Origin: Actinomycetota bacterium
GTDB taxonomy: Bacteria > Actinomycetota > Actinomycetes > S36-B12 > CAIYMF01
Length of the DNA stretch: 30,268 nt
NCBI GenBank assembly: GCA_009699025.1
Contig: WLOZ01000001.1
Span: forward strand, 1-30,268
Direction of reading: 5' to 3'
The notes beneath the pieces were generated by a model. The model had not been told where the DNA came from. It did not search any database and worked only from the letters and a program-made list of their open reading frames with translations. Made by a program: the position numbers and the translations under genes. Numbering within the stretch: position 1 is the stretch's first letter; every line of letters starts with the position of its first letter. Below, piece after piece: positions 8,384 through 26,947 of this stretch.

Positions 8384-9097
8384 ATGCGAGTACCAGCGGA
8401 CGGAGCGACTCCCGCGAGGGGGGTCTCGCGCCAGCAGCTCACCATTGCCGTGGCTGTTGTCGCCACCCTTGCCCTCTTCATCGGGCTGGGCGCGTGGGCC
8501 CTCCGGGTAAGAACTAGTCCCGTGCCGGCGACGGGCGCGACCACTCGAGCCTGCTCCGCGACATCAACCTCGCCACTCTCGGACACTGCGACGACCGCAG
8601 CCGACACAACCAACCTGACACTCGACACCACGTGCGGCCCGATCGTCATCCGACTTCTGACACGCGAGGCTCCGACCACCTCCCAGGCCATGATGTCGCT
8701 GGCCTCGTCAGACGGGCTCGACGGCGCGCCGTGCTACCGGCTGCTCACCCAGGTCATGTACGCGCTGCAGTGTGGCAACACGTCGTTCGACGGGAACTTC
8801 CTGGACGTGCCGGTCGAGAACCTGCCGCCGGATCGACCAAACAATTACCGCGCCGGCTACGTCGCCCTCATCACCGACTCGGCCGGCACTCCCACCGACC
8901 AGTTCTTCATCGCCTACCGCGACTTCTCGCTGCCCCCGCGCTTTCCCGTGTGGGGGGAGGTCACCGAGGGTCTTGCCATCGTTCAGGCGATCGCAGCAGC
9001 AGGCGTTCGCCCGGGAACTTCGAACGCCGACACGAGTATCGTGGCTGGCGAGCCACTTGAGCCGATCAGCATCGTGAGCGCCCGCGCTGGCTCCTAA
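8384..9097 (+). CDS. membrane-anchored cyclophilin-type peptidyl-prolyl isomerase
   Basis: This 237-aa protein has an N-terminal membrane anchor (about 19-40), a Thr/Ser-rich linker, and a cyclophilin domain (about 78-235) outside the membrane. Recognisable elements are TTCGPIVIRLLTREAPTTSQAM, CYRLL (Arg119 at the catalytic arginine position), GYVALITDSAGTPTDQFFIAY and WGEVTEGLAIVQAIAAAGV. It should isomerise X-Pro bonds and help fold secreted proteins; the Pro-rich secreted proteins encoded on both sides are attractive clients (inference). The usual QGGD near the active site is replaced by LQCGN, so activity may be altered. Cys130 and Cys117 could form a disulfide. It converges with pstB and the two stop codons overlap (9094-9097). 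Confidence 0.88.
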   Translation: MRVPADGATPARGVSRQQLTIAVAVVATLALFIGLGAWALRVRTSPVPATGATTRACSATSTSPLSDTATTAADTTNLTLDTTCGPIVIRLLTREAPTTSQAMMSLASSDGLDGAPCYRLLTQVMYALQCGNTSFDGNFLDVPVENLPPDRPNNYRAGYVALITDSAGTPTDQFFIAYRDFSLPPRFPVWGEVTEGLAIVQAIAAAGVRPGTSNADTSIVAGEPLEPISIVSARAGS

Positions 9098-9915
9098 CCG
9101 AAGCGGCCCTGCACGTAATCGTGGGTCCGCTGGTCCTGCGGGGAGTGGAACATCAGGTCGGTCGGGCCATGTTCGACGATGACCCCGGGCTGCCCGGCCT
9201 CGGCGAGGAAGAAGGCGCACTGCTGCGAGACGCGCGCCGCCTGCTGCATGTTGTGCGTGACGATGACGATCGTCACCTCGTGGGTGAGCTCCTTGATTGT
9301 CTCCTCGATGCGTCTCGTGCTGGTGGGGTCGAGCGCCGAGCAGGGCTCGTCCATCAGCAGCACCTTGGGCTTGATGGCCAAGGAGCGGGCGATGCAGAGC
9401 CGTTGCTGCTGACCTCCAGAGAGCCCTCCCCCGGGATTACGCAATCGATCCTTAACCTCCTTCCACAACCCCGCCTTCGCGAGGCACGTCTCCACCAGCT
9501 CGTCTTTCGTCTCGGTGGAGGCCGAGGTGCCGGTGAGCTTCAGACCGGCCACCACGTTGTCGTAGATGGACATGGTCGGGAAGGGATTTGGCCGCTGGAA
9601 CACCATGCCGATGTTGCGGCGGGCATCGGTGATCCGCTTGTCGGGACCGTAGATGTCCTCGCCATCGAGCAGCACCTCGCCGCCGAACGACGCGATGGCG
9701 ATCAGCTCGTGCATTCGGTTCAGGGTGCGCAGGAAGGTGCTCTTGCCGCACCCAGACGGACCGATCAGCGCCGTGCACAGACCAACAGGCATCGTGAGCG
9801 ACACACGGTCAAGGACCAGGTGGTCGCCGAACCACGCGCTGACAGAGCGCGCTTCTAGGGTGCCGCCGGACTGCATCAGGGTTCCGTCCGGCATGGCGGG
9901 GGAGGGGATAGTCAC
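9094..9915 (-). CDS. pstB: phosphate ABC transporter ATPase PstB
   Basis: The 273-aa ABC ATPase has Walker A GPSGCGKST (52-60), a Q-loop in FQRPNPFP (Gln107), signature LSGGQQQR (165-172), Walker B VLLMDEPCSALDP (185-197) and H-loop His221 in THNMQQAARVS. FQRPNPFPTMSIYDNV and DEPCSALDP are characteristic of PstB, which powers high-affinity phosphate import with PstC and PstA. It is the last gene of the long minus-strand run, 13 bp after the sortase-like gene. This is unusual, because pstB normally follows pstA directly; here pstA starts about 15.6 kb away. The start at 9915 leaves an N-terminal extension of roughly 18 residues before the ABC core. No phoU follows. Confidence 0.97.
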   Translation of the reverse strand: MTIPSPAMPDGTLMQSGGTLEARSVSAWFGDHLVLDRVSLTMPVGLCTALIGPSGCGKSTFLRTLNRMHELIAIASFGGEVLLDGEDIYGPDKRITDARRNIGMVFQRPNPFPTMSIYDNVVAGLKLTGTSASTETKDELVETCLAKAGLWKEVKDRLRNPGGGLSGGQQQRLCIARSLAIKPKVLLMDEPCSALDPTSTRRIEETIKELTHEVTIVIVTHNMQQAARVSQQCAFFLAEAGQPGVIVEHGPTDLMFHSPQDQRTHDYVQGRFG

Positions 9916-9928
9916 GGTTGTCCTCGTT

Positions 9929-25495: not shown

Positions 25496-25514
25496 GGTTG
25501 TCCAATCAGTCACG

Positions 25515-26528
25515 TCAGGCGTCACTCGCTGCACCTGATCTACTCCGGGCCACAATCGACGATGCGGCAAAGTTGATGATGAGCGTCATGATGAATAGGG
25601 CGAGTCCGGCAGCCATGAGGGCCGAGGTCCCAAACTGGGTGGCCTCTCCGTACCGCAGGGCAATCAGCGAGCTCACCGAGCTGCCGCCGTTCTGGAGGAT
25701 GTTCGGCTGAATAACGAAGATCGGCGAGATGATCAAGAAGACCGCGATGGTCTCGCCAAGCGCCCGGCCGAGCCCCAGCATGGTGCCGCCGATCATTCCA
25801 CCCTTGCCGTAGGGCAGGACGACACTGCGGATCATGCCCCACTTGGTGCCCCCGAGGGCGTAGGCACCCTCGCGCTCACCGATGGGCGCTTGCGAGAACA
25901 CCTCGCGGGTCACCGAGCAGATGCTCGGCGCGATCATGAAGGCGACCACGATCCCCGCGATGAATGTTGATGAGGTGTACACCGTGTTAGGCGACAGCGG
26001 ATCTTCGGGATCGACCCCATCGACACCGAAGAAGGGGATCCAGACGAACCAGGTGGAGATCCAGCGCGAGATCGGGACCACTTGGTTCTGCAACAGGAAG
26101 AAGCCCCAGAGGCCGTACACCACACTCGGCACGGCGGCCATCAGGTCAACGGCGCTGATGAGGGTCCGCGTGAGCCGGGCGGGGGCGTACTCGCTGATGT
26201 AGAGCGCGGAGCCGACGGCCAGAGGTAATGCGATCGCGACCGCGACCAGTGCGATGAGGATCGTTCCAACGAGGACGGCCGCGATGCCGAACCGGCCAGC
26301 ATCGGGCTCCCACGACTGGGTGGTGAGGAAGGAGAAACCCGCGGACGAGATGGCCTGCAGCGCGCGGAAGGTGAGGAAGAGTCCCACCAGGCCCATGATC
26401 AGCAAGACCACAAGACCGCTGGCCCGGATGATGCCACGGAAGACCGTGTCGGCCCGATCGTGGCTGGTGTCCAGCTCGCGGGGGTCGGGAGCCGACATCT
26501 CTGGCGGACGGGAATCGATGACGGTCAC
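25515..26528 (-). CDS. pstC: phosphate ABC transporter permease PstC
   Basis: The 337-aa protein has six or so transmembrane helices, starting with ASGLVVLLIMGLVGLFLTF. It carries the ABC permease motif GEREGAYALGGTKWGMIRSV plus VLPYGKGGMIGG and GLGRALGETIAVFLI, the PstC signature. LMAAVPSVVYGLWGFF is the conserved PstC block in the first half. The start GTG at 26528 overlaps the stop of the 140-aa gene (GTGA, 26525-26528), indicating translational coupling; an in-frame ATG at 26498 is an alternative. An extracellular insert (SPNTVYTSSTF) is normal for the actinobacterial type. pstA follows immediately. Confidence 0.95.
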   Translation of the reverse strand: MTVIDSRPPEMSAPDPRELDTSHDRADTVFRGIIRASGLVVLLIMGLVGLFLTFRALQAISSAGFSFLTTQSWEPDAGRFGIAAVLVGTILIALVAVAIALPLAVGSALYISEYAPARLTRTLISAVDLMAAVPSVVYGLWGFFLLQNQVVPISRWISTWFVWIPFFGVDGVDPEDPLSPNTVYTSSTFIAGIVVAFMIAPSICSVTREVFSQAPIGEREGAYALGGTKWGMIRSVVLPYGKGGMIGGTMLGLGRALGETIAVFLIISPIFVIQPNILQNGGSSVSSLIALRYGEATQFGTSALMAAGLALFIMTLIINFAASSIVARSRSGAASDA

Positions 26529-26947
26529 AGGGACACTGCCGGCTCTTCGCCGAGGAACACCGAGGCACGCACCGCCACCAGCCGCGCATCCGGCTGGGGG
26601 GGCTGGATGTCGGTGGCGAGCAAACGCTCTAAGAACACGCCGGCGTTGTAGACGCACTCTCGCTCACGACGGAATTCCCGGCAGCTGCGCAATTGACGGT
26701 CATCATCGATCACGGCCGCCCATGCCCAGTCGCCGCGGGAATTGCGCGAGTACCGGAAGCAATCGGTTCGGACCACCGACTTGACCGACACGACATGCGT
26801 GTATGCCTCGTCAACCGTCGGGCTCGCGTAGGTCGACCGGCCCAGCTCACGATTGTTGGGACCGAGGAGCCGCCACGAGTAGGCGTAAGCCCCAGCGTGC
26901 CCTCCCAGAAGGGCCACCCAGTGCACGCGCGCGCCCGCCGAAGTCAT
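26525..26947 (-). CDS. 140-aa protein, first gene of the pst run
   Basis: I do not recognise this protein with confidence. It is soluble, with no signal peptide, and contains SWRLLGPNNRELGRSTYASP then VVSVKSVVRTDCF, a pattern faintly like the small DUF1508/YegP repeat (WRL..NG.v...Y.s...sVK). It has four Cys, two in SCREFRRERECVYN. It is translationally coupled to pstC by a GTGA overlap and preceded by the PHO-box-like repeat, so it should be the promoter-proximal gene of the phosphate operon. ATG at 26947 is used although GGGGAG abuts it directly; GTG at 26926 or 26917 are possible later starts. A regulatory or accessory role in phosphate uptake is only an inference. Confidence 0.7.
   Translation of the reverse strand: MTSAGARVHWVALLGGHAGAYAYSWRLLGPNNRELGRSTYASPTVDEAYTHVVSVKSVVRTDCFRYSRNSRGDWAWAAVIDDDRQLRSCREFRRERECVYNAGVFLERLLATDIQPPQPDARLVAVRASVFLGEEPAVSL

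What the first reader, a model, noticed from the sequence alone, without database searches (positions are those of the whole stretch)
9094..26947. pst phosphate operon split by an 8-gene cell-surface block, with pstB at the far end
Seen: twelve minus-strand genes in a row, four junctions with 4-bp start/stop overlaps and the other gaps at most 77 bp. The order is 140-aa gene, pstC, pstA, pstS, two PstS-like genes, WxL-like, DUF916, three two-Cys-module proteins, sortase-like, pstB. Known: pst operons usually run pstSCAB(-phoU) without interruption. Inference: the surface block is part of the phosphate response and is made in step with the transporter. Keeping the essential ATPase gene last would ensure the whole block is transcribed with it.
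Basis: partly seen in the sequence, partly recalled or inferred. Interest (0 to 1): 0.85.

Follow-up and report, generated by a model that had tools for sequence, protein, structure and literature searches.

The report
Second Pst-like transporter with dead sortase
This stretch of an actinobacterial genome is probably not a broken-up phosphate-uptake operon but a second, separate phosphate-transporter-like machine, kept in nearly the same gene order in many actinobacteria, that carries extra binding proteins, surface proteins and a sortase that has lost its active site.

Summary
In detail: 13 (not 12) minus-strand genes at 9094-26947, four 4-bp overlaps, largest gap 77 bp, pstB last. In 81 loci (80 fetched plus the window), pstC-pstA-pstS lies directly upstream of the 874-aa gene in 65 of 67 loci with room, and the sortase-like gene is followed by pstB in 60 of 61.

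The reading "pst operon split by a surface block" is not supported. All 29 related genomes searched hold a PstB of 366-390 bits. The 20 of these regions fetched carry no surface genes. Cluster and housekeeping PstB separate at 100/100 support. The locus is a second Pst-type system; for the window's own genome, not held, this is by analogy.

The parts
26987..27019 (-). PHO-box-like direct repeat, three 11-nt units, 39 bp before the first start codon
   Evidence: 3-unit score 10.5, 0.0016 of genomic null windows, 0 of 690 shuffles; the 2-unit score alone is not significant (0.085 of genomic windows); coordinates
26525..26947 (-). g140: small protein; family resembles DUF1508/YegP repeats
   Evidence: Pfam DUF1508 at E up to 0.1 in 11 of 19 family members scanned (best 6.8e-8), not in the window's own copy; present in 43 of 67 loci with room
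25515..26528 (-). pstC-like permease (GTG start overlapping g140 by 4 bp)
   Evidence: TIGR02138 250.2 bits over cut-off; start
24188..25513 (-). pstA-like permease
   Evidence: TIGR00974 213.7 bits over cut-off; start
22353..24191 (-). PstS-like oxyanion receptor with a glycine-rich linker and a C-terminal membrane helix
   Evidence: TIGR00975 202.9 bits; PDB PstS matches; site residues; hydrophobic C-terminal stretch in 72 of 73 homologues
19732..22356 (-). 874-aa protein: N-terminal domain with strands, PstS fold at residues 277-744 with the phosphate loop apparently lost, P/T/S-rich stalk, C-terminal helix
18064..19662 (-). third PstS-like, secreted; keeps the GSGT loop, lacks the Arg and Asp ligands; window copy carries an insertion of about 100 aa
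   Evidence: alignment of 15 members (read by eye); 0 of 81 homologues with a hydrophobic C-terminal stretch; start (a TTG start at 19710 is also possible)
16279..18030 (-). WxL-like surface protein with Ig-like domain and an N-terminal two-Cys module
   Evidence: of 18 members scanned, Big_3_5 in 18 and Pfam WxL in 8 (E up to 0.1, best 1.6e-6), not in the window's own copy
15110..16201 (-). DUF916/WxL-interacting-protein-like
   Evidence: WxLIP_PGBD in 12 of 14 members scanned (E up to 0.01, best 2.4e-8); window copy 20.1 bits, below its cut-off; hydrophobic C-terminal stretch over the cut in 31 of 44 homologues
14208..15113 (-). two-Cys-module surface protein
   Evidence: start; hydrophobic C-terminal stretch in 59 of 80 ORFs of this group
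12857..14194 (-). two-Cys-module protein with Fn3 domains
   Evidence: Pfam fn3 2.5e-20; Cys at 72 and 151
10833..12845 (-). two-Cys-module protein with Fn3 domains; TADTG before a C-terminal hydrophobic stretch
   Evidence: Pfam fn3 1.3e-24; motif at residue 600 of 670; LAxTG or LPxTG motifs occur 26 times in the last 70 residues of the 80 ORFs of the two-Cys group
9929..10849 (-). pseudo-sortase: N-terminal helix, sortase domain without His/Cys/Arg, two C-terminal helices
9094..9915 (-). pstB-like ATPase, motifs intact
   Evidence: TIGR00972 333.9 bits; Walker A, LSGGQ, Walker B and H-loop in 60 of 60 PstB-profile hits in the 81 loci (E up to 1e-60, at least 230 aa)

Best explanation
The locus encodes a second, Pst-type ABC importer, distinct from the housekeeping PstSCAB, built for capture of phosphate or a close oxyanion at the cell surface. 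Shown from sequence: a PstC-PstA-PstB set with intact ATPase motifs; a membrane-tethered PstS whose oxyanion site is mostly kept; two further PstS-like proteins with a lost or altered site; a sortase-fold membrane protein without catalytic residues; and, in the long form of the system found here, a WxL/DUF916/two-Cys set of surface proteins. Inferred: the surface proteins hold the receptors out in the wall; ligand is caught by the secreted or stalked receptors and passed to the tethered PstS at the PstC-PstA channel; and the pseudo-sortase works as a binding scaffold that docks receptor tails or surface proteins at the channel instead of cutting them. In this genome the operon is probably switched on under low phosphate through the PHO-box-like repeat.
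For: Conserved order and strand in 65 of 67 and 60 of 61 loci with room, and both sortase-like gene and pstB in 54 of 54 loci with 9 kb downstream. In a phylum-wide draw all 7 genomes (of 296) with the 874-aa family have the pseudo-sortase within 6 kb on the same contig (two of the seven, G001 and G211, were already among the loci), and two more genomes (G030, G045) have it beside divergent pst sets in another order. A PstB of 366-390 bits exists in 29 of 29 related genomes, and 20 of 20 fetched lie outside such clusters, with a tree split at 100/100. Oxyanion residues: S38 73 of 73, R135 71 of 73, S139 72 of 73, G140 73 of 73. All 71 distinct pseudo-sortases found in these clusters that cover the sites (64 in the first set, 7 further) lack His and Cys, and 3 of 3 homologues beside no pst gene keep them. 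PHO-box-like repeat.
Against: No transport, binding or expression data were found for any member. Asp56 is Glu in 54 of 73 PstS copies, so the ligand may not be phosphate. The 874-aa receptor appears to have lost the phosphate loop. Most cluster loci (57 of 69) have no PHO-box signal above the null 99% mark. The surface block is optional: DUF916 was found in only 36 of 54 loci, so the wall-relay idea cannot hold in the same way for the short form. No gene family recurs next to the cluster, so no partner enzyme such as a phosphatase points to the ligand.
Confidence: 0.5

Rival explanations
1. A Pst-type importer for another ligand (a phosphate ester, a wall or teichoic-acid fragment, or another oxyanion), captured by the extra receptors.
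For: Asp56 to Glu in 54 of 73 PstS copies against Asp in 18 of 18 housekeeping copies; third receptor lacks the Arg and Asp ligands but keeps GSGT; weak or absent PHO boxes in most loci; a housekeeping-type PstB is present anyway.
Against: Ser38, Arg135, Ser139 and Gly140 are nearly invariant, as in phosphate receptors; PHO-box-like repeat in this window and some relatives; no gene family recurs alongside that would point to another ligand.
Confidence: 0.25
2. Not mainly an importer: a phosphate-sensing or ATP-driven surface-assembly device in which the Pst-like subunits act on surface proteins, with the pseudo-sortase as adaptor.
For: Two receptor-like proteins with degenerate sites; pseudo-enzyme followed by the ATPase gene in 60 of 61 loci; many surface proteins in the long form.
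Against: PstS site and PstB motifs are kept, which suggests selection for ligand-driven transport; the short form has few surface proteins.
Confidence: 0.15
3. One reading: the cell's one pst operon interrupted by a surface block, with the essential pstB kept last.
For: Gene order and tight junctions; PHO-box-like repeat.
Against: A PstB of 366-390 bits in all 29 related genomes searched, no surface genes at the 20 such loci fetched, separate PstB groups, variable place of pstB in relatives. The window's own genome is not held, so this is shown for relatives only.
Confidence: 0.04

Closest known systems
PstSCAB high-affinity phosphate importer (housekeeping, actinobacteria; review PMC7866108, passages seen)
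   Same: PstC, PstA, PstB and PstS homologues; most phosphate-site residues; PHO-box-like repeat in this window
   Different: pstB is separated from pstA (by eight surface or receptor genes plus pstS in the window); three PstS-like proteins, tethered or secreted; D56E; pseudo-sortase; a distinct PstB group; in relatives it is present beside a normal operon
Class E and related sortases (PDB 5go5, 5cuw; 4d70, class D)
   Same: Sortase fold and membrane position
   Different: Catalytic His, Cys and Arg all replaced; two extra C-terminal helices, a layout that also runs through the alignments of the catalytically intact homologues L112 and L113
WxL/WxLIP (DUF916-DUF3324) surface clusters of Bacilli (PMC10599100, abstract; PMC9772566, passages; PMC1534035, carbohydrate-utilisation complexes, search listing only)
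   Same: WxL-like and DUF916-like proteins; LPxTG or LAxTG motifs among the homologues of the two-Cys proteins
   Different: Actinobacterial, attached to a Pst-type ABC system, no W-x-L in the window protein's C-terminal domain, surface genes optional
Multiple PstS paralogues (PstS1-3 of M. tuberculosis, recalled; three PstS of marine Synechococcus WH8102, PMC10846223, start of abstract in the listing)
   Same: Several PstS-like proteins in one organism
   Different: Here one appears to have lost its phosphate loop and all are encoded together with the pseudo-sortase

Membership tests
Housekeeping PstSCAB | contiguous pstSCAB order | tested here: not met
   pstB adjacent to pstA in none of 81 loci (many loci are cut by contig ends)
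Housekeeping PstSCAB | PstC and PstA equivalog scores over cut-off | tested here: met
   250.2 over 196.45 and 213.7 over 193.45
Housekeeping PstSCAB | PstS and PstB equivalog scores over cut-off | tested here: not met
   202.9 under 205 and 333.9 under 343.2, both narrowly; some second PstB copies in relatives do pass the cut-off
Housekeeping PstSCAB | phosphate-site residues including Asp56 | tested here: inconclusive
   Thr10, Ser38, Arg135, Ser139, Gly140 and Thr141 kept in the window, Asp56 is Glu there and in 54 of 73 copies (numbering recalled)
Housekeeping PstSCAB | imports phosphate | not testable with these tools
   needs uptake or binding assays
Sortase (class E) | sortase fold | tested here: met
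Sortase (class E) | catalytic His, Cys, Arg | tested here: not met
   His to Arg 64 of 64; Cys to Ala 57, Gly 5, Ser 1, Thr 1; Arg replaced 64 of 64; one further row does not cover the sites
WxL cluster | WxL domain with dual Trp-x-Leu motif | tested here: not met
   Pfam WxL in 8 of 18 members scanned but not the window's copy; one WSL at residue 330, none in its C-terminal domain
WxL cluster | DUF916/WxLIP protein with TM helix | tested here: met
   12 of 14 family members scanned match, but the window copy is below the curated cut-off (20.1 under 27.3); C-terminal hydrophobic stretch in 31 of 44; DUF3324 was not among the families matched
Pho regulon member | PHO box upstream | tested here: inconclusive
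   three-unit match in the window; 12 of 69 loci above the null 99% mark on the two-unit score, 7 of 69 on the three-unit score; no binding data

The most novel reading that the evidence does not exclude
A previously undescribed kind of Gram-positive nutrient-uptake machine: an ABC importer with a dedicated pseudo-sortase subunit that has traded peptide cleavage for docking, a decoy PstS on a stalk, and in the long form a wall-borne relay of receptors that carries an oxyanion from the outer wall to the membrane channel.
Probability: 0.25. Interest if true: 0.82.

Novelty: new variant of a known kind. Interest (0 to 1): 0.62.

Why it matters
It shows that a good number of actinobacteria carry a second Pst-type system whose parts are mostly labelled hypothetical proteins. 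It also offers a sortase turned into a non-enzyme and kept next to an ABC ATPase gene; I recall no other such case. If the relay idea holds, it would bear on how a thick-walled bacterium moves a scarce anion from outside the wall to the membrane. A 2021 review of actinobacterial phosphate transport names only PstSCAB and the Pit systems as universally conserved (PMC7866108, passages); the term 'second pst' does not occur in its text.

Tried and rejected
Assembly accident or chance: rejected, since the order recurs in the 80 fetched loci. Neighbour genes as hidden members of the operon: no gene family outside the block recurs in more than 6 of 81 loci. Sortase acting as an enzyme on the LAxTG proteins of the block: rejected because the catalytic residues are gone. 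Surface block as the constant core: rejected, since DUF916 was found in 36 of 54 loci and the Streptomyces short form lacks it. Position of pstB as functional: not supported, because it varies (L034). The DUF916 homology search by single sequence gave only 6 hits. A two-unit PHO-box scan gave no significant hit in the window (score 10 of 14; 0.085 of genomic windows); the three-unit scan did. It is one of two scan forms, so its significance should be read with care.

Limits and results against. The 80 loci are the best 80 of 346 confirmed stretches, so they lean towards the window's own form; a few come from the same genome (for example L029 and L063). Order counts left out loci without enough sequence on the side tested (67, 61 and 54 of 81 used). 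L042 is the one locus where pstB does not follow the sortase-like gene. In the PstB tree five rows were put in no group: four long branches that are other ABC proteins by their length, and L034, a cluster-type copy that lies upstream of pstC; the program warned that joins of long branches may be false, and the window's copy and four Nanopelagicales-type copies lie nearest the housekeeping branch. Of 29 genomes, 20 housekeeping-type regions were fetched; pstS, pstC and pstB were all found in 18 and all four genes in 13; in L085 and L086 pstS was not detected. G014 has only one PstB match. In the weight-matrix scan the housekeeping control itself scored high in 10 of 17 and low in 7, where only the 500 bases before the longest ORF were used; with 300 bases more, 16 of 17 reached 11 of 14. 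The three catalytically intact sortase homologues lie next to an ABC ATPase gene too, but it is CcmA-like (over the CcmA cut-off in 3 of 3), and no pstC, pstA or pstS match lies in those stretches. Structures rest on alignments of 22 and 15 rows. The window's genome is not held, so a housekeeping pst in it is inferred.
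Full report
What is there. The window (66% GC) carries 13 minus-strand genes from 26947 down to 9094: g140, pstC, pstA, pstS, an 874-aa and a 548-aa PstS-like gene, a WxL-like gene, a DUF916-like gene, three two-Cys-module genes, a sortase-like gene and pstB. Junctions are tight, with four 4-bp overlaps and a largest gap of 77 bp. The cluster ends against a convergent cyclophilin-type gene that overlaps pstB by 4 bp.

The arrangement is conserved. A family alignment of the 874-aa protein gave 346 confirmed relatives in GTDB species genomes, of which the best 80 loci were fetched. 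With profiles built from the window's genes, pstC-pstA-pstS lies directly upstream of the 874-aa gene on the same strand in 65 of 67 loci with room; the two exceptions are a pstA counted as two hits (L030) and a weak stray hit (L040). The sortase-like gene is followed by pstB on the same strand in 60 of 61 (exception L042). Of 54 loci with 9 kb downstream, all 54 have both; DUF916 is found in 36 and a two-Cys gene in 37; g140 is found in 43 of 67; pstA and pstB are adjacent in none of 81. Three forms are seen: a long form like the window, a form without WxL and DUF916 (the Nanopelagicales loci L011 and L017, and L012, L045, L051), and a short form in Streptomyces. Outside the block no gene family recurs in more than 6 of 81 loci. 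In draws of whole genomes the 874-aa family is patchy: 7 of 296 across the phylum and 21 of 81 in the family of Paractinoplanes atraurantiacus.

It is a second system. In 29 related genomes TIGR00972 finds a PstB over its cut-off in every one (366-390 bits for the best hit), and in 28 of 29 at least one more copy, most of them at 330-358 bits; the window's copy scores 333.9. Twenty best-hit regions were fetched: pstS, pstC and pstB lie together in 18, all four genes were detected in 13, and in none of the 20 did the profiles find surface, pseudo-sortase or extra-receptor genes. In a maximum-likelihood tree the 60 cluster and 20 housekeeping PstBs fall on two sides of one branch of length 1.82 with 100/100 support, with a program warning about long branches. 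So the window most likely shows not a split pst operon but a paralogous machine; for the window's own genome, which is not held, this is by analogy.

Surface block. Of the members scanned, DUF916/WxLIP matches 12 of 14, Pfam WxL 8 of 18 and DUF1508 (for g140) 11 of 19; the window's own copies are below cut-off or without a match. LAxTG or LPxTG motifs occur 26 times near the C-termini of the 80 ORFs of the two-Cys group. In Bacilli, WxL and DUF916 proteins are thought to sit together on the wall (PMC10599100, abstract; PMC9772566, passages), so a wall-side complex is a fair inference here.

Regulation. A simple repeat search finds a PHO box of at least 11 of 14 positions at 16 of 17 housekeeping pst operons and at 26 of 69 cluster loci (regions of 800 and 560 bases), against 66 of 1035 genomic windows. 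With a weight matrix 12 of 69 cluster loci pass the null 99% mark on two units and 7 of 69 on three; the same matrix scored 10 of 17 housekeeping regions high. Loci are related, so these are not independent counts. The window has a three-unit match 39 bp before g140. Phosphate control is thus plausible here and in some relatives, and not shown for most.

Best account. A second Pst-type importer with extra receptors and a pseudo-sortase scaffold, for phosphate or a near ligand. Steps shown: gene content, conservation, separateness in relatives, loss of catalysis, kept oxyanion site. Steps inferred: transport, ligand, relay through the wall, the docking role of the pseudo-sortase, phosphate induction.

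Novelty. Searches for a pseudo-sortase, for PstS with sortase or WxL genes, and for a second pst operon in actinobacteria listed no paper that I could recognise as describing this locus; except for (2 of 2 shown), only the best 12 to 20 of 44 to 435 papers were listed, and the library holds only open-licence papers. A 2026 study of all five sortase candidates of Actinoplanes missouriensis does not use the words PstS or phosphate in its main text (term search; passages seen).

Noticed in passing
7038-8300 (-): A 420-aa protein whose C-terminal part resembles that of the WxL-like protein of the block lies beyond the convergent cyclophilin gene; a possible partner outside the operon.
   Followed up: partly
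L111:9058-9918 (+), L112:8116-9069 (+), L113:8863-10722 (-): Sortase homologues with intact catalytic His/Cys/Arg beside CcmA-like ABC genes: possibly close to the enzymatic ancestors of the pseudo-sortase.
   Followed up: partly
22353-24191 (-), residues from 451: The PstS linker holds 15 occurrences of NTGGG in a TGGGN-type run, a flexible spacer before the membrane helix.
   Followed up: no
L117, L118: In these relatives the pseudo-sortase and pstB stay neighbours but PBP548 and DUF916 genes lie after pstB, so the surface block is movable.
   Followed up: partly
L034:3229 onwards (+): A cluster-type pstB (inside the cluster group of the tree) lies upstream of pstC here; the contig ends before the usual pstB place.
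   Followed up: no
8384-9097 (+) and 9094-9915 (-): The cyclophilin-type gene and pstB converge and overlap by 4 bp.
   Followed up: no
20-107 (-): A tRNA-Ser (CGA) lies at the left edge of the window.
   Followed up: no
genome of L079 (G028): This genome shows six PstB matches, three of them between 345 and 358 bits, so it may hold more than one such cluster.
   Followed up: no
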